NCBI RefSeq assembly: GCF_020497125.1
Contig: NC_059094.1
Span: forward strand, 4,505,733-4,569,732
Source of the DNA: Mauremys mutica
Taxonomy: Eukaryota > Chordata > Testudines > Geoemydidae
Length of the DNA stretch: 64,000 nucleotides
Direction of reading: 5' to 3'
The notes beneath the pieces were generated by a model. It had not been told where the DNA came from. It saw nothing but the letters and a program-made list of their open reading frames with translations, and made no database searches. Made by a program: the position numbers and the translations under genes. Below, one piece after another: positions 10,902-31,989 of the stretch. How positions within the stretch are numbered: position 1 is the stretch's first letter; each line of letters begins with the position of its first letter.

Positions 10902-12025
10902 TAAGAGAACAAGGCAGAGGAAAAGACAGGCCAGTGAAGGAGAAATAGAGCTCAGGAACAGGTTTGCAGAGTTGGAAAATGAAGAAGGGGCACGGCAGGT
11001 GGTCGCTAAGGTGAGAGGGCAAGGAAGAAGAGAAGATCAGCTTGTCCTATAGGAAGAGAGGAAGAGTCAATGGAGATAACACCAAATATGAGCCCCAGGA
11101 GGATACAGGATGGGTTGTGGAGGATTGCAAGGGAGAATAGGAATCGAGAGGACTTGCAGCCAGAGGGAACAGAGGATAGACCAGAGAATCGCACCATCAC
11201 CAGGAAAAGGCAGGTCTACATGATTGGGGACTCCTTACTGAGAAGAATAGACAGGCCTGTAACCAGAGCTGATCCAGAGAACAGAAGGGTGTGCTGTCTG
11301 CCAGGTGCTAAGATACAGGATGTGGACCTGAGACTGAAGAAGATCCTAACAAGAGAGGGAAGGAATCTGCTGATTGTTCTTCATGTGGGAACAAATGATA
11401 CGGCTAGACTCTCGCTGGAACCTATCAAGGGAGACTATGCCAGGCTGGGGAAGATGCTTAAGGAAATCGAGGCTCAGGTGATCTTTAGTGGGATTCTGCC
11501 TCTTCCTAGAGAAGGGCAACAAAGGTGTGACAAGATTATGACAATCAACAGATGGCTCAGGCAGTGGTGCTATAAGGAGGGCTTTGGTATGTATGGCCAC
11601 TGGGAGGCATTCATGGACAGAGGACTGTTCTCTTAGGGCTGGTCCACACTAGCACTTTAAATCGAATTTAGCAGCGTTAAATCGAATTAAGCGTGCACCC
11701 GTCCACACCAGGAAGCCATTTAATTCGACATAGAGGGCTCTTTAGTTCGACTTCGGTACTCCACCTCGACAAGGGGAGTAGCGCTAAATTCGACATGGCT
11801 ATGTCGAATTAGGCTAGGTGTGGATGCGAATCGATCTTAGTAGCTCCGGGAGCTATCCCAGAGTGCAACACTCTGCTGACGCTCTGGACTCCAGTCCGAG
11901 CTTGGATGCTCTGACCAGCCACACAGTCAATGCCCCTGGAAAATTTGAATTCCTTTTCCTGTCTGGACAGTTTGAATCCCATGTCCTGGTTGCTCATCGG
12001 GGCGAGCTCAGCAGCACCGGCAACG

Positions 12026-12394
12026 ATGCAGAGTTCTCCACCAGAGGAGTCCAGGCAATCTCAGACTACAAAGAGGTCCCCAGCATGGACTGACCGGGAA
12101 GTCTCGGATCTGATTGCTGTGTGGGGCGATGAGTCTGTGCTTTCGGAGCTGCGCTCCAGCAAACGGAATGCAAAGACCTTCGAGAAGGTCTCCAAAGCCA
12201 TGACAGACAGAGGATACAGCCGGGATACAACGCAGTGCTACGTGAAAGTCAAGGAGCTGAGAGAAGGCTACCAGAAACTCAGAGCGGCAAACGGACGCTC
12301 CGGAGCCCAGCCCCAGACATGCCGCTTCTACGAGGCACTGCATACCATTCTTGGTGGGTCTGCCACCACTGCCCCACCAGTGACCGTGGACTGA
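12026..12394 (+). CDS. Harbinger Myb/SANT-like DNA-binding protein
   Basis: In vertebrate Harbinger elements this partner protein binds the transposase and transposon ends and helps bring the transposase into the nucleus. The frame is open from 11930. I prefer the Met at 12026 (MQSSPPEESRQ), giving about 122 residues, because the extra upstream residues look unstructured. The Myb-like trihelix starts at SPAWTDREVSDLIAVWGDE and continues through FEKVSKAMTDRGYSRDTTQC and VKVKELREGYQKLR, ending near FYEALHTIL. The spacing of Trp, hydrophobic and Tyr/Phe residues fits the Myb/SANT-like 4 class. No zinc finger is visible. A polyadenylation signal (AATAAA) follows at about 12626. The upstream Met at 11930 cannot be excluded. 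Confidence 0.82.
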   Translation: MQSSPPEESRQSQTTKRSPAWTDREVSDLIAVWGDESVLSELRSSKRNAKTFEKVSKAMTDRGYSRDTTQCYVKVKELREGYQKLRAANGRSGAQPQTCRFYEALHTILGGSATTAPPVTVD

Positions 12395-12643
12395 GAGGAT
12401 GGGATACTGTCGACGGACTGTTCCTCGGAGATGTTCGCGTACGGGAAAGTTTAAGAGGACGAGGCAGTCGACAGCGCTTACAACACAGATTTCCCCGACA
12501 TCCAGGATCTCTTCGTCACCGCCAATGAGATCCCCTACCAACACTCCCCACCCGTTACCACGGACCCTGATTCAGGAGAAGGATCAATCGGTAACTGCTT
12601 CAAACATGTTAACATTTATTTTTTAAATAAACTGGGAAAACAA

Positions 12644-13560
12644 CTAGGCGAACACAAGGTCTATGTACAGGTGGATGGAACTGTCATCTTCCTCTGACAT
12701 CTCCAGGAAGCTCTCCAGGAGGTAATCGCCAAGCCTCTGCATGAGGTTCCTGGGCAGGGCTTGCTTATTGGGTGCCCCGAGGAAGCACACTTTTCCACGC
12801 AACGCTCTCAGCTGGAACTCGGGGACCAGCGCCTTCACGAACATGGCAGCATAGGCCCCAGGGTTCTGTTGGCTTTCCTCCAGCATGCGCGCTCTCTCTC
12901 TCCGTGACACTCTCCTCAGTGTGATGTCGTGCGCAGACTCCTGCATGTAATTAGAGTAATTTGTGTACCATTATTAATGGTTGTGCTTAACTGTTCCTTT
13001 GCATAACAAGAAGCGTCACTGTACAGCCACGTGTAGGAGGCTGCAGAGTGGGAGAATACAGGGATCTCTAACAGGGAACGGCCGCGAGGGGCTGCAACAG
13101 GGGCACCGATTCTGCTTTCATGTTTGCCTGCAGCAGGAGGACAGTGCTGTAGATGCAACTTAAAGCTGCAAAAAAAACTAGGCTTACCATGCCTGGCCGC
13201 TCCATGGATTCTTCTTTCCTGCCCCGCTTCTCTGGTCTGCAGTGCAATACCACAGGCAATGAAAGCGAACCCAGAGAAATCGAACTTTCCCCGAGTGAGT
13301 GCTCATGAGAGAGGTGCTGTGCTTGCTCTTGTTCACACACACTGAGTAGACTTGACTTTGTTTCTTTTTTGACCAAAAATATCTCTCTATGGAATTCACT
13401 CACTTTTTCCCATCACACAGGTGCAACTGTATCCCTACCTGATCCAGGCGCCTTGTCGATGTTCTGCAGCACCGCAGGAAGGAGGACGGAGCTCCCCTTC
13501 ACTGCATCTGCGACCGCCGCCCCCCGCCGCAAAGTCCAATCCCACCATCACCCAAAATGA
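12644..13560 (-). CDS. Candidate third, spliced gene of the Harbinger element
   Basis: The minus strand at 12644-12940 is open and ends in a stop shortly before AATAAA, so it looks like a 3' terminal exon. It encodes an acidic-ended protein with SRRERARMLEESQQNPGAYA, LRALRGKVCFL and LGDYLLESFLEMSEEDDSS. The first bases are preceded by an acceptor-like ATTACATGCAG. Upstream at 13440-13560 another open stretch ends at a donor-like CAG|GTAGGG (13439), and the two would join in phase. No function is recognised; the Arg-rich helical part could be a DNA- or protein-binding region. The intron and any further exons to the right are inference. Confidence 0.4.
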
Positions 13561-14680
13561 CTAGAGGAAGGGGCACCAGGGGCCGTGAAAAATGTTAATG
13601 CACCACAGCAGAGTGCTAAACTTACAAAACGCTCTCAGTACCTTACTTTTGAGAAGTCCTTCCCTTAATGTGCTGTTCATTATTAAAAGTTTTTATTTTT
13701 TGGTAATTTCTTTTCCCATCAGGTTTCTTTGCAGAATACTTTCCGTGAAGGGGGGAGAATGGTTTGGGAATTGCATAGGACTTTCACCGTTAATAGTGGT
13801 ACAGATATGGGGGCAAGATCAACAGCTGGTCACTCACAGAGTGCAGCCTCTAGTCACCCTGGTCAGTCTGTGGGGTGATTTTCATGTTCTGCTCATAGGC
13901 GGAAGGTGCCCTGCGCCAGGTATATTTGCAGGTGGGTCTCTCCACCGGCCATGCCTGGATCGTGCCCTGTCCCACGCGGGTCTCCCCCAGCCCCGTCAAT
14001 TCCCTGCCTGGAGCAAGTACCAGCCCCCACCTGCCACCCCTCCCCCGGCGTGTCATCTCACACACACCCCGCCGCACTGCGTCCCTGTCTCACAGTAGAG
14101 AGGCTACCCGCAGAAATGCTGTCTGCTGCCCCAGGGTCATTGAGCATGCCATCCACAAGTGGCAAGGCAGGTTGCCCTCACCCTGCCCTTCTATCGTAGC
14201 CCTGAGCCTCTACAATGCATCAAACCATCAGCCCCCAGCCCGCAACCCCCTACACCTCCTCCCCATTATCACACACCACTCACACCTTCCTACGCCCCCA
14301 ACCCTCAGCCCAGAGCCTGCACCCAAACTCCGTCGCAAAGCCTGCACCCCTCACCCATTCCTGCACATGCACCTGTACCAGTCCTCACCACAGAGACCGC
14401 TGTACGAGCAGGAGCCTATCAGTCCTATAGTCTAGAAGCGGTCTCTACATCACTGCACACCCAACCCAGCACAGTCACCGTCCCTGTGTCAACCCTTTCA
14501 CGCGAAGTCAGTAGTCCAGAGAAGGTTGTTGCTGAACAATGCTCTATTAACTTTATTTGTACACGTGTGTTGGAAGGGGGTAAACGGGGTGAACGGGATA
14601 TGAAACTGTAGAGGAGAGTCAACAGAAACTGGGTAAAGAAACAGGGGCAGGTTCCGCTTCTCTATACACAAATTTAATAG

Positions 14681-16000
14681 TCACAGGTTACCCTGCTTGC
14701 TGAGGAACCTGGCTTTCAAAGCCTCCCGGATGCACAGCGCTTCCCGCTGTGCTCTTCTAATCGCACGGGTGTCTGGCTGAGCGTAATCAGCAGCCAGACG
14801 ATGTGCCTCAAGCTCCCATCCCGCCATAAAGGTCTCCCCCTTGCTCTCACACAGATTGTGGAGCACACAGCAAGCTGCAATGACAACGGGGATATTGTTT
14901 TCGCTGAGATCCGAGCGAGTCAGTAAGCTCCTCCATCTCCCCTTGAGACGTCCGAAAGCACACTCCACCACCATTCTGCACTTGCTCAGCCGGTAGTTGA
15001 AGAGTTCCTTGTCAGTGTCCAAGGCGCCTGTATAGGGCTTCATGAGCCAGGGCATTAGCGGGTAGGCTGGGTCCCCGAGGATCACTGTAGGCATCTGCAC
15101 ATCCACAACAGTTATTTTGTAGTCTGGGAAGAAACTACCTTCCTGCAGGTGTCTAAACAGACCAGAGTTCTTGAACACACGCGCGTCATGAACCTTGCCC
15201 GGCCACCCGACGTTGATGTTGGTAAACCGTCCCCTATGGTCCACGAGTGCTTGCAGCACCATGGAAAAGTAGCCCTTGCGGTTTATATACTGGCTGGCCT
15301 GGTGGGCCGGTCCCAGGATAGGAATGTGAGTCCCATCTATAGCCCCACCGCAGTTTGGGAATCCCATTGCGGCGAAGCCATCTATGACAACCTGTACGTT
15401 TCCCAGGGTCACCACCTTCGAGAGCAGGAGATCAACGATTGCATTGGCTACTTGCATCACTGCAAGCCCCACGGTAGATTTGCCCACACCAAAGTGGTTC
15501 GCTACTGAGCGGTAGCTGTCTGGCGTTGCAAGTTTCCAGAGGGCTATGGCCACTCGCTTCTGCACAGTCAGGGCTGCTCGCATCCGGGTGTCCTTGCGCG
15601 TCAGAGCAGGGGACAGCAAGTCACACAGTTCAAGGAAAGTGCCCTTACGCATCCTGAAGTTTCGCAGCCACTGTGATTCATCCCAGACCTGCAGCACTAT
15701 GCGGTCCCACCAGTCCGTGCTTGTTTCCCGGGCCCAGAATCGACGTCCCATAGCATGAACATGACCCATTGCCACCATGATCTCCACGGCGCGGCGTACC
15801 GTGCTTTCTGAGAGGTCTGTGCCACTCTGAGACTTCATGTCCTCACCACGCTGCCGTTGCCTTCTCGACCGAGTTCTCAACATCTCACTGTGGAAGAGGT
15901 GTTCGATAAGGTGCGAGGAGTTGACAACGACCATAAGTGCAGCGATGATCGCAGCGGGCTCCATGGTCGCAGTGGAGTGCTGTGGCATCCGTGCTGTCAC
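14681..16000 (-). CDS. PIF/Harbinger DDE transposase (HARBI1-related), intact
   Basis: The protein is 439 residues long and uninterrupted, the usual size or slightly longer for Harbinger transposases. A helix-turn-helix-like part lies at about 145-185 (LTVQKRVAIALWKLA...SYRSVANHFGVGKSTV). The DDE nuclease core follows, with likely catalytic residues D222 (GGAIDGTHIP), D310 (GDPAYPLMPW) and E346 (VECAFGRLKGRW); D272 (GKVHDARVF) is the conserved extra Asp of the family. The Arg-rich segment near 43-52 could be a nuclear signal. The enzyme should cut and rejoin the element ends at TWA targets. The start at 16000 is the first Met; the nearby Mets at residues 5 and 13 are alternatives. Its C-terminal 90 residues are closely matched by the remnant at 30190-30465. 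Confidence 0.95.
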   Translation of the reverse strand: MTARMPQHSTATMEPAAIIAALMVVVNSSHLIEHLFHSEMLRTRSRRQRQRGEDMKSQSGTDLSESTVRRAVEIMVAMGHVHAMGRRFWARETSTDWWDRIVLQVWDESQWLRNFRMRKGTFLELCDLLSPALTRKDTRMRAALTVQKRVAIALWKLATPDSYRSVANHFGVGKSTVGLAVMQVANAIVDLLLSKVVTLGNVQVVIDGFAAMGFPNCGGAIDGTHIPILGPAHQASQYINRKGYFSMVLQALVDHRGRFTNINVGWPGKVHDARVFKNSGLFRHLQEGSFFPDYKITVVDVQMPTVILGDPAYPLMPWLMKPYTGALDTDKELFNYRLSKCRMVVECAFGRLKGRWRSLLTRSDLSENNIPVVIAACCVLHNLCESKGETFMAGWELEAHRLAADYAQPDTRAIRRAQREALCIREALKARFLSKQGNL

Positions 16001-16368
16001 TTATAACAGGAAAAGTGCGCAAACTGATTTCTCGCCGGCGGGAGTGACGGTTGAATGATGACAGTTACCCAAAACCACCCTCGACACAGTTTCCTCCCCC
16101 CCAGCATGCATTGGTGGGAAATCCCAGCATTCCGATGGGCGGCGGGGAGTGCGGGAACTGTGGGATAGCTTCCCACAGTGCACCGCTTCCAAAGTCGACG
16201 CTTCGCCCGTTACTGTGGACTCACACAGTCGAATTACTGTATTTATTGTGGATACACAACTTCGACTACATTAGGTCGATTCCAGAAATTCGAATTAAGA
16301 TGAATCGAAATAGTCTTGTAGTGTAGACGTACCCTTAGGATGGACTTCGCCTGAGTAGGGAGGGAAAT

Positions 16369-21732: not shown

Positions 21733-22861
21733 TAATAGTGAAAAGTGCAAGGTCATTAATAACAATAATTTTGGTTATAAATTGGGGATGCATCAGTTGG
21801 AAGTAACAGAGGAGGAGAAGGACCTTGGAATATTGATTGATCACAGGATGACTATGAGCCGCCAATGTGTTATGGCTGTTAAAAAAGTGAATGCGGTTTT
21901 AGGATGCATCAGGTGAGGTATTTCCGGTAAAGATAAGGAGGTGTTAGTACCATTATACAAGGAACTGTGAGACCTCATCTGGAATATTGTGTGCAGTTCT
22001 GGACTCCCATGTTTAAGAAGGATGAATTCAAACTGGAACAGATACAGAGAAGGGCTACTAGGATGATCCGAGGAACGGAAAACCTGTCATATGAAAGGAG
22101 ACTGAAAGAGCTTGGCTTGTTTGGCCTAACCAAAAGAAGGCTGAGGGGAGATATGATTGCTCTCTATAAATATATCAGAGGGATAAATATCGGGGAGGGA
22201 GATGAATTATTTAAGCTTAGTACCAATGTGGACACAAGAACAAATGGATATAAACTGGATGCTAGGAAGTTTAGACTTGAAATTAGACGAAGGTTTCTAA
22301 CCATTAGAGGAGTGAAGTTCTGGACCAGCCTTCCAAGGGGAGTAGTGGGGAAAAAAAATATCTGGCTTCAAGACTAAGCTTGATAAGTTTATGGAGGGGA
22401 TGGTATGATGGGATAGCCTAACTTTGGCAATTAATTTGGCAATTGATCTTTGATTATTAGCAGGTAAGTGTACCCAATGGTCTATGATGGGATGTTAGAT
22501 GGGGTGGGATCTGAGTTACTACAGAGAATTCTTTCCTGGGTGCTGGCTGGTGAGTCTTGCCCACATGCTCAGGGTTTAACTGATCGCCATATGTGGGGTC
22601 TGGAAGGAATTTTCCTCCAGGGCAGATTGGCAGAGGCCCTGGAGGATTTTCGCCTTCCTCTGCAGCGTGGGGCACGGGTCACTTGCTGGAAGATTCTCTG
22701 CACCATGAAGTCTTTAAACCACGATTTGACGACTTCAATGGCTCAGACACAGGTTTGATACAGGAGTGGGTGGGTGAGATTCTGTGGCCTGCATTGTGCA
22801 GGAGGTCAGACTAGATGATCATAATGGTCCCTTCTGACCTTAAAGTCTATGAGTCTTTGAG

Positions 22862-23011
22862 TCCCTGCAGCCCCTGGGGGGGTCAGGGAGCTCCGCGCAC
22901 TGCTCCTGTCTGCAGGCACCGCCCCCATAGCTCCCATTGGCTGCAGTTCCCAGCCAATGGGAGCTGTGGAATCAGCGCTTGGGGCATGGGCAGCACACAG
23001 AGACCCCTGCC
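22862..23011. repeat. GC-rich interspersed repeat with CCAAT dyad
   Basis: Contains AGCTCCCATTGGC...GCCAATGGGAGCT, an inverted repeat with two CCAAT boxes. A similar dyad lies at about 45105-45152 in another element. The repeat continues at 27546-27600 on the other side of the provirus, which split it. Confidence 0.5.
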
Positions 23012-23344
23012 TGTTGCGTCTCGGTGCCTCTCAGGCGGGCACGGACAGAGCCCAACAATCAATGTGATTGGTAGCAAAATCATTTATTTCTCTCCAGCAT
23101 GCTCTTATATACAATTATGGCAGGCAATCAAGCAATTGCTAATTGGTTAATAAGATACACACAGGCACAGCTGTAACTTCATAGGGTAATTGTCATCCTG
23201 TACAACTTTCTGATTTATTATCCTGTTTACTGCCTACTGGCAGATGACAACCAGCCCAAGGCCAGCATCTCAGGCACAGCTCACAGCCTAATTAGCACGT
23301 CCTAGAAGCCTGAACACAAAGGCTTCTCACATACCGTTCCCACA
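23012..23344 (-). repeat. Provirus 3' LTR
   Basis: On its sense strand it begins TGTGGGAACGG and ends CGCAACA (TG...CA). TATATAAG lies on the minus strand at about 23099-23106 and AATAAA at about 23085. It matches the other LTR except near 23079 and 23247 (one substitution each). Confidence 0.95.
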
Positions 23345-23356
23345 TCTCCCCCCTCT
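23345..23356 (-). promoter_or_regulatory. Polypurine tract
   Basis: Sense-strand AGAGGGGGGAGA stands immediately before the 3' LTR, where plus-strand DNA synthesis is primed in retroviruses. Confidence 0.78.
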
Positions 23357-23473
23357 ATTCAAAATCAAAAGGAGGAAAAAAGGTAAAGGCATTAGCAAAA
23401 CTTCCCAACTCATAATATCAATACTACAATCTACACAAACCAAAGCTAAAAGGCAAATAAAAACACCAGCTGC

Positions 23474-24073
23474 CTAACTAAACCGTAACAATATCTTCCG
23501 CAGTGCCCTACTCTCATCTATACATCCCTCCTCCGATAACGCAAGTGGCCCAAGGGGCCAGGAGGGTCCCGCCAAGGTGCGTGCCACACAACAGCAACGG
23601 CGGCCACACAAATAACAAAAATACAAAAGGCAAGCAGCAAAAATACACAGCATCCCTAGCATTAAACCTTGCAATAAGTGTGCAGCCCAGCCACGTAGCG
23701 ACGACATCCATGACCACAGCCAGAAATCTCCCTGTTGCTGGCGGATGCCCTCCGCTAGGTGGCGCAAACGATCCAAATCAGCTTCAATAGCCACACTCGC
23801 ATCTGTAATATTAAAGCAGCACATACCCACAAAATCAGAACAAGGATGACCATCTCGCAGCAATAAATAATCAATGGTTAAGCAATTCTGCAAAACTCCT
23901 CGGCGAACTTCTCCCATCTCTTGAGTTAACAAGGCAAGAACAGTAGAGGTTAAATTCAAAGCCTTCGCCACAGTACAGACAAGGTGTGCTACGGCATGGT
24001 AATTATGCACCACCAGACCAGGGAGGCCCACCAGGGTAAAAGTAAGGGCTGCTGCCTCCTGTTCTAAAAACAA
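23474..24073 (-). pseudogene. Retroviral env transmembrane-subunit remnant
   Basis: The frame of 199 codons resembles the C-terminal (TM) part of a retroviral envelope protein. Visible in order: a hydrophobic, Leu/Val-rich N-terminal stretch; a heptad-like segment ending in QNCLTIDYLLL; a CX6CC-type motif (C-SDFVGM-CC), the usual disulphide-bonding site in TM; and a membrane span of about 23 residues (GLMLGMLCIFAACLLYFCYL) with a short Cys/Arg-rich tail. The segment around QNCLTIDYLLL is the position called the immunosuppressive region in this family. No surface subunit is recognisable upstream, where stops appear, so the gene is truncated at its 5' side. It lies at the correct place, just before the polypurine tract and 3' LTR. 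Confidence 0.82.
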
Positions 24074-26440
24074 GGTAACATCTGCCTACTGTCGCGCCCG
24101 AGGACGCAGCCAAGGCCGGACCCACTTCTCCGGAATCCACCTTGCTTACTGATTTCCCATTTCCCATGTAACTTATCTGATCCCAGTTAGGCCACCTGGC
24201 ATTTGCCTCGCTCTGGCTGTTCCCTACTTTCTCATAACTTTATCTCATCCCTCTGTTCTTGTGACCACGCTACTGTAACTTTCCACCAAAGCAGCATAGG
24301 GAAAATGCAACCCCACATCCACATCTTCCCCTCTATTCCAAAACACACAAAAAAGGCAAAAAAAAATAATAACAGTAACCAATTAAACAAAACAAAGCAT
24401 AACATACATCAAAACAAAACAAACATAAATTAACATCTATCAGTAAATGCATGGTACATAAATGCTATGCAGCTAACATCAATTTTCTTTAATATCTAAA
24501 AAACAAAACAAATCTACCCCTACTAGGCAATCAATCATTACTTAAAATATACAAATACCCTATTAATTTCAGACAAAACAGGGGAATCACTTCATCAATT
24601 AAATCATTTACATCAATACAGTTGCTTCTGGCTTGCTTGTGAATTCAAAGCTATTCACAGCTTAAAATTTCTTACATTAACTTCTACTTTTAAACACTAA
24701 AGAAAAACATCAACACTATATGCCCTTAGGACCTAATACAATCTCAATTACATAGCACTATACACATTCTTCAGCTAATACAACAAAATTATTCATAGCC
24801 AAACAATTACAAACTAATTTCTTTGCCTAAATGTATTTTCAAACATTTTAAAAACACCAAAAACATTTCTCTTAACATCTTTACAAAATTCAACTGCTGT
24901 TCCCTCTAGCAACCACAGAATTAACTTTTCACTTTGCCTTAAATTACTCGCTTGTACTCCAACAGCCACCTTTCTCAACTTAAATCACCATTCCAAGTAT
25001 CCCCCTGAATATTTAAAATTCCCAAGCTTGTGCTCAATTACCTGTTCGTTCCACTACACCCTCACAAATTTCCAACCAGTTTTGTAATCTCTTTATTTAT
25101 TGCCTACCCGTCTGGGCCCGATCCTTTTTTCCTTTCCAAGTTCTCTGTCTATTGCCTGCCCGCCTGAGCCCGATCCTTTTTTCCTCGCAGAAACGTTCCG
25201 TCCATGGACACTAGCTTATCCTACCATCAATTTAGCTAGGAGGGTGTACTTTTTAACTAGCCCCCACCCATCTGATATTCTTCTGTGAACAGTTATCTGT
25301 ACTTTCCCACCGTGGGGGCCACATTCTCAAGGATAACTTTAATTACAACATCTGCTTTCAACCTATCTATTTTAATATAGGCTACATCTAGTATCAAGCA
25401 ATCTACAACTGCCAATAATCAGCACATAACACAAAATTTACAAAAATCAGGTAAGGCTAACAAAAGCACTTTACATAAAGGTACTTTGGGTCACACAAAT
25501 TCAAAGCCATTCTTCCAAATTACCTAAATTTATGCCTAGTAACCTACAACTCCCCCCTTTGAGAATACTCAACAAACCTTTTGGCTGAGTTTTCTCAAAC
25601 TTTAAGAACAAAAAACAATTAAACTCTAGGAAGCTGGGGTTAGTAATGGGGGGGGGGGTAATATCAATTACAATCCAATTAGGGAGGGCAATACATGCTA
25701 AAAAAAAATTTCTCCAGAACACAGGGCGCAGCCTGTAAAATAAACCCCAAAATCCAATTAATACCACATTTCTTAGCAGGAGTCCCAAATTTCTTCCTGC
25801 CAGTGTACAATTCTTTGTTTCTTCACCAGGGTCAGTTCTCAATGTCCTTTTAGTCAGGAATTTCTGGGCTTTGGCAACGTCAATGATGTGAGTGTTTTTT
25901 CTTCTTTTCCACCACCGTCGTGGTTCAGCTTCTACGGGGGAAATTACCAGGACATTATTTTGTAGTGGTCTTGCTTCTTTCAAAAAAAAAATCCAATAAC
26001 ACAATGGGGGCTGCAGCGGACAAGGGAGAGGTTAGCCAGCACGTCACCTTGTCCTTTTTTCCTGCTGTTTAGAAGCACAATGGAGCTAAAAAAAAATAGG
26101 CCAATCATCAGTAGCAGAATTCTCCTGATGTGAAGGGATCTTTTTGCAGTAAAAATCATGGGTCCAGGCAGTCAGTCTCCTGGTTGCAAGAAGTGGTAGG
26201 GCTGCTAGGATCTTTGGGCAGCTCTTCCATACCTGTGAGAAGAGACAGCTAACACATTCCATTAGTGCCTGGCAGGGTTTTTCAGCTCTCATTAGCTTTT
26301 TTGGGCGGTTTTTCAGCTCTCATTAGTCTTAGCTGTGAGCAATGTGTCCTTGACCGGGGCCAGAAAAGAATGAGCTGTCTTCGGTTAACTCATTCTGTTC
26401 CTTTTCTTTCCCTGCTTGGCTTCTTTTAAACTGTAAATCC
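24074..26440 (-). other. Provirus interior without recognisable gag-pol
   Basis: A/T-rich, with strong strand bias: A and C on the + strand, hence T and G in the provirus sense. A second CCCCTCTATTCC motif near 24328 repeats the polypurine-tract region on the + strand. One minus frame of 167 codons (25501-26004) and several shorter ones show no retroviral protease, RT or integrase motif. 'TTTTTCAGCTCTCATTAG' occurs twice near 26278-26328. This is deletion plus foreign or decayed filler; its origin is unknown. Confidence 0.5.
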
Positions 26441-26444
26441 TGTG

Positions 26445-26834
26445 TCAGAACACCCAGCTGTTGCTGTTCATACCGGAGAAGCATAACGATTTTCTCGGCA
26501 TTGTCCCAGGCTTAGACCAGCCAGCGTAGGACGCCTTCTCCAGGCTCCTGCCAAAACAACTTACTTGCTTGTAGGTCCGAACGACCTCCGGGGCCACGGC
26601 ACGAGCCTCTGCCTGCGCCGTGCACTCCAACGTCTTCCCGTCCAGGGCTCGCTTCCAGCGGAGCACCTCCTTGTCCTGTGCCCGAAGGGCGGTCAGGAGG
26701 AGCCTCTCCAGCTCCCCCTCTTTCCTTAATAAGTGAGGTAGTGCAGCAGGGGAACTCTTTTCCGCCTGTTGGTTCATAATGTGCAATAAAGGCTTCTGTG
26801 TTATCTTTTCTTCAGCTGATACAGCGGTACTCAT
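26445..26834 (-). other. 129-codon frame at the gag position
   Basis: It starts about 350 bases inside the primer site, where gag normally begins. It is Glu/Lys/Leu-rich and probably helical (LRKEGELERLLLTALRAQDK). I see no late-domain, major-homology or zinc-knuckle motif, so it is at most a gag fragment or an unrelated frame. Confidence 0.35.
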
Positions 26835-26849
26835 AACTTAGCTGCTCTG

Positions 26850-27064
26850 CCCTTCTCCGCCGCGACTTATAGTCGCCCTTCTTCTCCGCGGCTTATAGCC
26901 GCCGCTTTTCTCCGCGACTTATAGCCGCCCTTCTTCTCCGCGGCTTATAGCCGCCGCTTTTCTCCACAACTTATAGCCGCCCTTCTTCTCCGCGGCTTAT
27001 AGCCGCCGCTTTCCTCCGCGACTTATAGCCGCCCTTCTCCTCCGCGGCTTATAGCCGCTCTCCT
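26850..27064 (-). repeat. Tandem repeat in the proviral leader, eight units of about 26 bp
   Basis: Units alternate between two variants: CTTCTCCGCGGCTTATAGCC and TTCTCCGCGACTTATAGCCG, each followed by GCC/GCT filler. Each unit holds a GGCTTATAGCC or GACTTATAGCC near-palindrome. It lies between primer site and the first frame, where retroviruses hold packaging and dimerisation signals. Confidence 0.88.
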
Positions 27065-27186
27065 CAGGGCTCAGGTGCACCTCTCTTTTCGGACGCCCGG
27101 GGGCTTTTCCAGCTCCCAACCGCAGCTCCTCCGCCTGGAACAGGCCACCGACACTAGGCCACCGACACTATCATCATTCGATTCGA

Positions 27187-27204
27187 ATCACGTCGGGGTC
27201 ACCA
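27187..27204 (-). promoter_or_regulatory. Primer-binding site, tRNA-Trp type
   Basis: The sense strand reads TGGTGACCCCGACGTGAT, complementary to the 3' end of vertebrate tRNA-Trp, two bases inside the 5' LTR. This is the primer used by the avian alpharetroviruses. Confidence 0.9.
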
Positions 27205-27206
27205 TT

Positions 27207-27539
27207 TGTTGCGTCTCGGTGCCTCTCAGGCGGGCACGGACAGAGCCCAACAATCAATGTGATTGGTAGCAAAGTCATTTATTTCTCTCCAGCATGCTCT
27301 TATATACAATTATGGCAGGCAATCAAGCAATTGCTAATTGGTTAATAAGATACACACAGGCACAGCTGTAACTTCATAGGGTAATTGTCATCCTGTACAA
27401 CTTTCTGATTTATTATCCTGTTTACTGCCTACTGGCAGATGAGAACCAGCCCAAGGCCAGCATCTCAGGCACAGCTCACAGCCTAATTAGCACGTCCTAG
27501 AAGCCTGAACACAAAGGCTTCTCACATACCGTTCCCACA
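27207..27539 (-). repeat. Provirus 5' LTR
   Basis: Same length and termini as the 3' LTR. TATATAAG on the minus strand at about 27294-27301 would drive transcription leftward through the leader repeats and env frame. AATAAA at about 27280. Confidence 0.95.
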
Positions 27540-27600
27540 CCTGCCACCCCCCCACCCCCCCTCACAGAGGCTGCAGGGACGTGCCAGCCACTTCCGAGAA

Positions 27601-29875: not shown

Positions 29876-29902
29876 CTACACTACCGTGCGGGGTCGATCT
29901 AA

Positions 29903-31746
29903 GGGTATGTCTACACTACCAGATTAGTTCGATTTAACTTAATTCGAATTTGTGGAATCGACCTTACAAAGTCGAATTTGTGTGTCCACACTAAGGACAC
30001 TAATTCGACTTTGTGAGTCCACACTAACGGGGCAAGCGTCGACATTGGAAGCGGTGCACTGTGGGAAGCTATCCCACAGTTCCCGCAGTCCCCGCTGCCC
30101 ATTTGAATTCTGGGATTTCCCCACAATGCATGCTGGGGGGAAAAATGTGTCGAGGGTGGTCTTGGGTAACTGTCATCATTCAACGTGCTTTCGGACGTCT
30201 CAAGGGGAGATGGAGGAGCTTACTGACTCGCTCGGATCTCAGCAAAACCAATATCCCCATTGTTATTGCAGCTTGCTGTGTGCTCCACAATCTCTGTGAG
30301 AGCAAGGGAGAGACCTTTATGGCGGGATGGGAGGTTGAGGCAAATCGCCTGGCTGCTGATTACACTCAGCCAGACAGCCGTGCAAATAGAAGAGCCCAGC
30401 GGGAAGCGCTGTGCATCCGGGAGGCTTTGAAAGCTAGGTTCCTCAGGGAGCAGGGTAACCTGTGACTGTTCAGTTTCTTTACAGAGAAGCTGGACCTGCC
30501 CCTGCTTCAGTTACTGTTGACTTTCTTCTGCGGTTACATACCCCGTTCACCACGTTTCCCCCCTTCCAACACACATTTAAAAATAAAGTTAATGGAACAT
30601 TGTTAATTAACAACGTTTTCTTTATTAATGAATTCGCGTTAAAGGGTTGAAACAGGGACGCAGACTGTGGTGGGTAGGGTGTGCAGTGATGTTAACACCG
30701 CTTCTACACTCGAGGAATGATAGGCTCCTGCTCCTAGAGAGGTCTGCAGTGCCGGACTGGTTGTTTCAACGGAGCCTGCCATCCCTCCTTTTCGGGACTC
30801 TGTGTGCGGGGGCTACATGACCTTGTGGCGAGGGAGGACGGTTACAGATTCCCCTGCTGCGTGGCTCTGTGGTCCGGGACAAGGACCGCTGCATAAGTTC
30901 TGTAACCGCCCTCCCATGCCACAAAGTCATGTACCCCCCACCCACACAGAACATGGAAAACACCTCCCAGACCGACCAGGGTGCCTACTGACTGCACTGT
31001 GTGTGTGACCTGCTGCTGATCCTGCCCCCGTGTCTGTACCCTGGTAAAGGTGACTGTCCTATGCAACCCCCTTCCCCCCCACCCCCTTCACAGACAGTCT
31101 TCTGTAGAAAAACTTGACGGAAATAGTAATTAACAGCAAACTACTTTTAATAATCAACTACACAGTTAGGGGATGAAACTGGGATTGGGGCTTCGGTGAG
31201 CCAGGAAGGGAAGGACTTCTCAACATTTAGGGAATGAGAGCCTTCTTGTATTTGTGCACTCTGCAGGGGTGCAGTGACAGTTTTCACGGCCCCTGTCGCC
31301 CCTCCTTCTTGTTACTTTGGGTGAGGGGGGTTTGGGACTTTGTGGCGGGGGAGGGCGGTTGCAGATACAGTGCAGGGGGGCTCTGTCCTCCTGCCTGCGG
31401 TCCTGCAAAACATCCACAAGGCACCAGAGCGTGTCAAATTTTCCCTGGGCATTTCCTGTGTGGCTGGTCAGAACATCCAAGCTCGGACTGCTGTCCAGAG
31501 CATCAACAGAGTGGTGCACTGTGGGATAGCTCCCGGAGCTACTAAGGTCGATTTCCATCCACACCTAGCCTAATTCGACATAGCCATGTCGAATTTAGCG
31601 CTACTCCCCTCGTCAGGGAGGAGTACAGAATTCGAACTAAAGAGCCCTCTAGGTCAAACTAATTAGCTTCCTGGTGTGGACGGGTGCACGGTTAAGTCGA
31701 ATTAATGCTGCTAAATTCGACATAAACTCCTAGTGTAGACCAGGCC
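29903..31746. mobile_element. Deletion derivative of the 4.7-kb Harbinger, 1.84 kb
   Basis: Flanked by TAA on both sides (29900-29902, 31747-31749). Its left 280 bases match the right end of the element at 11636-16334 in reverse orientation, including 'GGAAGCGGTGCACTGTGGGA'. The match breaks after CATTCAAC and resumes inside the transposase C-terminus. The right end matches the left end of the autonomous element. The Myb-like gene, most of the transposase and the third-gene exon are gone. Confidence 0.9.
30190..30465 (+). pseudogene. Harbinger transposase C-terminal remnant
   Basis: Reads AFGRLKGRWRSLLTRSDLSK, then VIAACCVLHNLCESKGETFM and ends EALKARFLREQGNL. It is about 90% identical by eye to the last 90 residues of the intact transposase at 14681-16000. 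All three catalytic Asp positions are deleted; only the region from just after the Glu remains. The open frame continues 5' into terminal-repeat sequence by chance (from 30061). Confidence 0.87.
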
Positions 31747-31989
31747 TAAGATATGCAACTTCAGCTACGTGAATAGCATAGCTGAAGTCGACGTACTTAG
31801 ATCTACTTACCGCGGTGTCTTCACTGCAGTAAGTCAACAGCTGATGCTCTCCTGTTGACTCCGCTTGCGCTTCTCATTCTGGTGGAGTACTGGAGTCGAC
31901 AGGAGAGCGCTCAGTGGTCAATTTGTCGTGTCTATACTAGACTAAATAAATCGACCCCCACTGGATCGATCGCTGCTCAAAGCCCTCAG

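What the first reader, a model, noticed from the sequence alone, without database searches (positions are those of the whole stretch)
23012..27539. Very young provirus with a 6-bp duplication and tRNA-Trp primer site
The two 333-bp LTRs differ at two positions. A 6-bp duplication and tRNA-Trp primer are alpharetrovirus-like traits, unexpected in a turtle. A defective genome with such fresh LTRs must have been moved by the proteins of another, intact virus or ERV.
Basis: partly seen in the sequence, partly recalled or inferred. Interest (0 to 1): 0.75.

Follow-up and report, generated by a model that had tools for sequence, protein, structure and literature searches.

The report
Hitchhiking defective retrovirus family in turtle
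A pond-turtle genome carries many recent copies of a retrovirus relic that has lost its own replication genes and was probably copied by longer sister elements sharing the same ends, and its leftover envelope gene is of a kind a 2013 review described only from birds.

Summary
In detail: a minus-strand provirus at 23012-27539 with 333-bp LTRs (2 differences), exact 6-bp duplication, tRNA-Trp-type primer site and purine tract. The host is almost certainly Mauremys mutica. It belongs to a recently active family. The 40 scored LTR matches (of 1482 candidates) include 12 more two-LTR copies, each with 0-2 LTR differences; 11 of 12 have an exact 6-bp duplication. Of 19 proviruses examined, 14 (window included) share a gag-pol-less interior, 1 has such an interior plus a full env frame, 3 have gag, dUTPase-protease, RT and integrase without env, 1 is unclear. 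The gag scrap shows no purifying selection. An ETn/MusD-like passenger, copied by envless gag-pol sisters with the same leader, fits best; trans movement is inferred. It is not simply alpha: Env is 'avian gamma-type', but the sisters' gag-pro-pol looks class II with a dUTPase-protease frame. PMC3758190 (2013; passages, one section) called that Env bird-specific; Mauremys and sea turtles carry it. LTR age is about 4 My (0.5-15.5) under an assumed rate. Polymorphism and trees are untested.

The parts
23006..23011 (.). left copy of the 6-bp target-site duplication CCTGCC
23012..23344 (-). 3' LTR, 333 bp
23345..23356 (-). polypurine tract AGAGGGGGGAGA next to the 3' LTR
23474..24085 (-). env remnant: open frame of 203 aa covering most of TM (second flanking Cys, N-glycan site, CX6CC, anchor and tail region); no SU, and the first flanking Cys is not in frame
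   Evidence: Pfam TLV_coat 3.6e-05; ASLV TM 49.8 bits; 90% identical in alignment to Mauremys reevesii P0005; motifs; frames upstream
24086..24449 (-). stretch next to the TM remnant; most of it matches the C1 copy, in which about 0.9 kb holding env SU lies between it and TM
24450..26444 (-). filler in place of gag-pol, shared with the other short copies; no Pfam family above cut-off in the frames scanned
26445..26837 (-). ORF1, 130 aa: decayed N-terminal gag fragment
   Evidence: 34.6% over 81 aa to residues 8-84 of a sister copy's gag frame, E 3.6e-06; 73% over 49 aa to P0011; 83% to P0004; no purifying selection
26849..27058 (-). leader array of eight 26-nt units, each with a GCGGC-UAUAA-GYYGY-type hairpin (one unit GCGAC/GUCGC)
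27187..27204 (-). primer-binding site, tRNA-Trp type (tRNA identity recalled)
   Evidence: identical in 11 of 12 other two-LTR copies, one change in the twelfth
27207..27539 (-). 5' LTR, 333 bp; TATATA at LTR position 234 and AATAAA at 257
27540..27545 (.). right copy of the 6-bp target-site duplication CCTGCC

Best explanation
This is one copy of a non-autonomous, recently amplified class II-type ERV family of Mauremys mutica. It keeps the cis parts (LTRs, primer site, leader hairpins, purine tract), a decayed scrap of gag and a piece of env. Its RNA was most likely packaged, reverse transcribed and integrated by proteins from sister elements with the same LTR type and leader that encode gag-pro-pol but lack env, as MusD serves ETn in mice. 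Shown: shared defective interior, fresh LTR pairs, separate duplications, existence of gag-pol sisters. Inferred: transcription, packaging through the leader, and trans supply.
For: Of 9 other short copies, 8 share leader, ORF1 and filler pieces at about 80-99% identity, and the ninth is a further deletion form; 4 more short copies have similar content. None of these 9, nor the window, nor C1 has a match (E up to 1e-3) to sister capsid, dUTPase-protease, RT or RNase H; only gag N-terminal pieces and, in window and C1, a 17-residue scrap of the end of integrase. Twelve other LTR pairs differ at 0-2 sites each, 9 of 3889 in all, and 11 of 12 have exact 6-bp duplications of their own. ORF1 shows no synonymous excess in 8 comparisons and 2 of 10 copies have an in-frame stop, so the loss of function predates these insertions. 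A sister copy with the same leader and primer site has Gag_p24, dUTPase+RVP, RVT_1, RNase_H and rve domains; two more have matching gag, dUTPase-protease, RT and integrase. LTR pairs are 0/325 in the two tested.
Against: No expression, particle or transposition data exist here. Sister LTRs are only about 94-95% identical to the window's, while a solo LTR (98.5%) and the C1 copy (97-98%) are closer, so the helper of this very copy may not be among those seen. Only 40 of 1482 LTR candidates were scored, so a complete gag-pol-env provirus may exist. In one sister RT is spread over several frames. TM in window against C1 shows a mild synonymous excess (9 of 18 single changes, P 0.014, one multi-change codon left out), which a pure passenger would not need.
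Confidence: 0.82

Rival explanations
1. An ordinary full provirus inserted here and lost gag-pol and SU afterwards by internal deletion.
For: Possible for any single copy. The window copy lacks about 0.9 kb of env that the C1 copy has.
Against: The same filler interior recurs at other loci that have their own duplications and fresh LTRs; independent deletions would not bring in the same filler.
Confidence: 0.05
2. The helper was an infectious complete retrovirus (gag-pol-env), absent from or unseen in this genome, that packaged the defective RNA and reinfected the germ line.
For: Predicted Env proteins of 423 and 438 aa exist in Mauremys reevesii and one of 375 aa in Lepidochelys; TM shows a mild synonymous excess.
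Against: Among 18 proviruses whose content could be read, none had both gag-pol and env; envless sisters would suffice for movement inside a cell.
Confidence: 0.25
3. LTR similarity was caused by gene conversion and the insertion is old.
For: Cannot be excluded for one locus.
Against: Thirteen LTR pairs at different loci differ at 0-2 sites within the pair, while LTRs of other loci differ from the window's by 2-6%.
Confidence: 0.04
4. The family is a true alpharetrovirus of turtles.
For: TM best match is ASLV (49.8 bits; next group 30); alpha-type primer site (recalled); gag best match 5a9e, 86 bits (RSV, recalled), then RSV CA 69, ERV-K CA 61.
Against: Sister copies have dUTPase and protease in one frame apart from the gag capsid frame; integrase scores 208 with 7usf and 205 with 3jca (MMTV, recalled) against 151 with 7jn3 (RSV, recalled); RT best match 7sr6, 338 bits (HERV-K, recalled), with no alpharetrovirus RT recognised among the 60 rows shown.
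Confidence: 0.12

Closest known systems
ETn / MusD of the mouse (class II)
   Same: Non-coding LTR element plus coding partner that lost env; recent insertions and solo LTRs; MusD shown to supply the machinery (PMC6466679, passages)
   Different: Different lineage and host; tRNA-Trp-type primer site; pieces or a whole frame of avian gamma-type env in the non-autonomous branch; helper action not shown here
EAV-HP and ART-CH of chicken
   Same: Alpha-related defective elements; EAV-HP is believed to spread with a helper virus; [quoted passage not shown]
   Different: Chicken; detailed ART-CH structure recalled only; here helper candidates were found in the same genome
Avian gamma-type Env (ALV/RSV)
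   Same: Cys-flanked internal fusion peptide with first Cys at TM residue 9, N-glycan site at start of HR1, CX6CC, no CXXC in SU
   Different: In turtles; similarity to the ASLV structure extends over 63 aligned residues; joined to a dUTPase-bearing backbone in the same family
Recombinant avian class II gag-pol with gamma-type env (described in PMC3758190, section 10)
   Same: Class II gag-pol with alpha and beta features and a gamma-type Env
   Different: That Env is plain gamma-type; here it is the avian gamma-type variant

Membership tests
Non-autonomous LTR retroelement with autonomous partner (ETn/MusD type) | LTR pair, primer site and purine tract present | tested here: met
Non-autonomous LTR retroelement with autonomous partner (ETn/MusD type) | no pol coding capacity | tested here: met
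   no Pfam hit in 9 of 10 interior frames, two sub-threshold hits in the tenth; no match to sister capsid, dUTPase-protease, RT or RNase H, only a 17-residue integrase-end scrap
Non-autonomous LTR retroelement with autonomous partner (ETn/MusD type) | many copies share the same defective interior | tested here: met
Non-autonomous LTR retroelement with autonomous partner (ETn/MusD type) | coding partner with same LTR type and leader | tested here: met
   3 copies; whether any is functional was not judged
Non-autonomous LTR retroelement with autonomous partner (ETn/MusD type) | partner proteins move it | not testable with these tools
   needs wet-lab work
Alpharetrovirus | tRNA-Trp primer site | tested here: inconclusive
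   same 18 letters in 12 of 13 two-LTR copies, one change in the other; match to tRNA-Trp recalled
Alpharetrovirus | avian gamma-type TM | tested here: met
   in P0001, P0003, P0005, P0006, P0007 and the C1 copy; the window copy lacks the first Cys in frame
Alpharetrovirus | no dUTPase, protease at end of gag | tested here: not met
   in two sister copies dUTPase+RVP share one frame; definition recalled
Alpharetrovirus | RT groups with alpharetroviruses | not tested
   no reference set for a tree; only structure-database scores
Class II (beta-like) ERV | 6-bp duplication | tested here: met
   12 of 13 two-LTR copies including window; 7 of 14 single hits are solo LTRs with it
Class II (beta-like) ERV | dUTPase-protease frame and class II pol | tested here: inconclusive
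   frame met; pol class rests on match scores only; in sisters, not in the window copy
Betaretrovirus | beta-type Env | tested here: not met
   CX6CC avian gamma-type TM; D-type betaretroviruses with gamma-type Env exist (PMC3758190, passages)

The most novel reading that the evidence does not exclude
A split retroelement: in this turtle lineage one set of elements carries gag-pro-pol without env and another carries env without gag-pol, with shared LTR type, hairpin leader and primer site, and they depend on each other for spread between cells or germ lines, env being kept by selection. In 18 readable proviruses the two gene sets never occur together (3 gag-pol; 15 filler type, of which 1 has a full env frame), and TM differs between two filler-type copies with a synonymous excess (9 of 18 single changes, P 0.014). 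The sample is small and drawn from the LTRs closest to the window's, and only 1 of 15 filler copies keeps the full frame.
Probability: 0.1. Interest if true: 0.75.

Novelty: new variant of a known kind. Interest (0 to 1): 0.55.

Why it matters
It gives reptiles a likely counterpart of the mouse ETn/MusD pair, with candidate partner and passenger copies in one genome and near-identical LTRs, so recent retroelement activity in a slowly evolving lineage can be tested by genotyping. The Env result bears on an older claim: a 2013 review (PMC3758190, passages and section 10) held the cysteine-flanked fusion peptide to be unseen in retroviral TM outside birds and used this to suggest that filoviruses, whose GP2 resembles it, arose in birds. 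Mauremys and sea turtles (Natator, Lepidochelys) carry it, so that premise no longer holds as stated.

Tried and rejected
IMG/VR scans with TM and ORF1 alignments gave no relative. Pfam and structure searches with ORF1 and the 176-aa frame gave nothing above chance. A predicted structure of ORF1 was of low confidence (mean pLDDT 46.1) and was not searched; the second fold job and the fold libraries were not used. Rfam and tRNA scans of the window: no match. A covariation control on the leader hairpins was negative: 58 of 59 units keep all five pairs, but 796 of 1000 arm shuffles reach the observed total because one arm hardly varies. I considered ORF1 as a maintained or captured host gene and rejected it: it is gag-like and shows no purifying selection. 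A profile that included the UFM1-fused protein P0002 drew in UFM1 structures; those rows were ignored, and P0001 was searched alone as a check, with ASLV again first and filovirus GP2 second. No tree of TM or RT was built because no named reference set could be had without typing viral letters. The rate for dating and several virus names behind structure codes are recalled.
Full report
What is there. The provirus reads on the minus strand. Its 5' LTR is 27207-27539, its 3' LTR 23012-23344, both 333 bp, with 2 differences. CCTGCC flanks it on both sides. Two bases beyond the inner end of the 5' LTR lies the 18-nt primer site; a purine tract precedes the 3' LTR. The LTR has TATATA at position 234 and AATAAA at 257. 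The leader holds eight 26-nt units. At E 0.01 no other match to the LTR or interior exists in the window apart from the tandem units.

The interior. On the coding strand there are three notable frames: ORF1 (130 aa), a 176-aa frame and a 203-aa env TM frame. Five proteins were scanned against Pfam first, then ten minus-strand frames at a lax cut-off: only the TM frame gave a family above its cut-off (TLV_coat), and one small frame gave two sub-threshold hits. Searched with a sister copy's frames, the window interior shows the ORF1 match to gag and a 17-residue scrap of the end of integrase beside env, nothing of capsid, dUTPase-protease, RT or RNase H. The region 24300-25050 is about 28-33% GC, below its neighbours.

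Host. The protein search with the TM frame gave 3 proteins at E 0.001, all turtle: Natator depressus, Carettochelys insculpta, Mauremys mutica. The M. mutica protein lies on a contig of 112,858,392 bases, the length of contig C8 in the window's genome. The genome is 2.48 Gb in 595 contigs. I conclude M. mutica (Geoemydidae).

A family. Of 1482 LTR candidates, 40 were scored; all 40 (two are the window's own) matched at 94% or more. They resolve into 13 two-LTR copies (26 hits, window included) and 14 single hits. LTR-LTR differences in the 12 other pairs are 1, 0, 2, 2, 0, 1, 1, 0, 1, 1 and 0, 0. Exact 6-bp duplications occur in 11 of these 12; the exception shares 5 bp. Of the 14 single hits, 7 are solo LTRs with exact 6-bp duplications, 3 are followed by a primer site, 3 are preceded by a purine tract, 1 is unresolved.

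Shared defect. Segments of the window interior were compared with 9 short copies: 8 share leader, ORF1, filler and the last 182-195 bp of TM, though leader and ORF1 are only partly matched in some; the ninth (C7b) is a further deletion of the same. Four short copies next to single hits are alike. ORF1: in 8 full-length comparisons (two with partial matches left out) single changes are 0-5 synonymous against 7-11 non-synonymous; over 10 comparisons dN is 0.034-0.048 and dS 0.022-0.089, 2 of 10 have an in-frame stop and 1 a one-base gap. ORF1 is 34.6% identical over 81 aa to the start of a sister's gag frame. In two copies (C3, C1) a longer gag N-terminal piece, about residues 4-268, is 81-86% identical to that sister. 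A defect shared across loci with fresh LTR pairs must predate those insertions; hence copying in trans.

Helper candidates. Two copies of 6.7-7.0 kb have LTR pairs without any difference (0/325 each), the same primer site and leader. In one, Pfam finds Gag_p24, dUTPase plus RVP, RVT_1 and thumb, RNase_H and integrase; in the other dUTPase plus RVP, RVT_1 and thumb were scanned, with RT over several frames, and gag and integrase match at 97%. A third was found beside a single LTR hit. None of the three matches Env SU or TM at E 1e-10. I make no statement on whether any is functional. Tally of 19 proviruses: 14 filler type without full env (window, C11a, C11b, C11c, C7a, C3, C8, C2, C7b, C4, C10, C1b, C11d, C8b), 1 filler type with a full env frame of 448 aa (C1), 3 gag-pol type (C14, C7c, C3b), 1 unclear (C3c). 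C11d also holds integrase sequence, which I assign to a nested different provirus. One single hit (L061) was not resolved. The sample favours LTRs near the window's own.

Env. The TM frame scores 49.8 bits with an ASLV TM, 30 with the best filovirus GP2 (RAVV), 26 with an Env chain whose virus the listing does not name (9bsu), 23 with syncytin-2, 12.7 with an MLV-related Env. Natator's protein gives 55.8 (ASLV), 33.8 (RAVV GP2), 24.7 (9x3j, unnamed), 22.4 (syncytin-2) and 20 (MLV-related). In six turtle proteins with a readable SU-TM junction the first cysteine is TM residue 9; in the five of them with both cysteines the second is 45 or 47 and an N-glycan site follows seven residues later; CX6CC is present in all that reach that far; the five with SU have no CXXC in SU. 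The C1 copy shows cysteines 9 and 47, CX6CC and no CXXC in SU. Carettochelys shows only the later part of TM, so the fusion-peptide trait is untested there. Pfam Avian_gp85 is hit below its cut-off by several (best turtle E 0.00035, bat protein 6.3e-06). These are the features that PMC3758190 (passages, section 10) lists for the avian gamma-type, which it calls specific to birds. [quoted passage not shown] PMC5006616 (passages) says that endogenous alpharetroviruses are only found in avian genomes. I saw no report of this Env in turtles in the listings of searches or in the passages read of PMC6001957, PMC4299795, PMC9967133; most subscription papers are not in the library and Repbase was not available.

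Backbone. The sister integrase scores best with 7usf and 3jca (208, 205 bits) and lower with 7jn3 (151); RT with 7sr6 (338) before HIV RTs (166 and less); gag with 5a9e (86), RSV CA (69) and ERV-K CA (61) (capped lists). Virus names for 7usf, 3jca, 7jn3, 7sr6, 5a9e are recalled. With the dUTPase-protease frame this points to a class II backbone between alpha and beta; only a tree can place it. Betaretrovirus-related ERVs in Testudines were already reported (PMC6001957, passages).

Age. 2/333 gives 4.3 My at 0.7e-9 per site per year (95% 0.5-15.5), 2.5 (0.3-9.0) at 1.2e-9 and 8.6 (1.0-31.0) at 0.35e-9. The 0.7e-9 is one third (PMC4054807, passages) of a recalled mammalian rate of 2.2e-9. All 13 pairs together: 11 of 4222 sites, about 1.9 My on the same rate.

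Leader. Units carry a GCGGC/GYYGY-type stem with loop UAUAA; 59 units in 13 leaders, 1-12 per copy, in both classes; 58 of 59 keep all five pairs. The window leader folds more stably than shuffles (z -2.37, 1 of 100 as good). A packaging role is a guess; the arm-shuffle control was negative.

Noticed in passing
protein P0009: A predicted protein of the bat Phyllostomus discolor has an Avian_gp85-like SU piece (below cut-off) and a CX6CC TM resembling the turtle Env (34% to the window TM in alignment), on a 174.6-Mb contig; its fusion-peptide region does not align and shows no first flanking Cys.
   Followed up: partly
protein P0002: Carettochelys insculpta ubiquitin-fold modifier 1 isoform X2 is annotated as UFM1 residues (Pfam match 3-64) followed by an env TM: exonised ERV or annotation error.
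   Followed up: no
window 26849-27058 and leaders of 12 other copies: Hairpin units with UAUAA loop, varying from 1 to 12 per copy.
   Followed up: partly
window 22861-22882 and 27559-27580: A 22-nt inverted repeat (86%) flanks the insertion, so the provirus may sit inside an older inverted repeat.
   Followed up: no
window 11631-16338 and 29899-31751: Several stretches of 72-89% identity in opposite orientation, likely two copies of another repeat.
   Followed up: no
L078-L079: The C11d copy seems interrupted by a related but different provirus (LTR pieces about 74% similar, integrase 89%).
   Followed up: no
literature: PMC9967133 section 5: Chelonid herpesvirus 5 protein HP35 is said to resemble gamma-type Env; whether it derives from this turtle Env group was not tested.
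   Followed up: no
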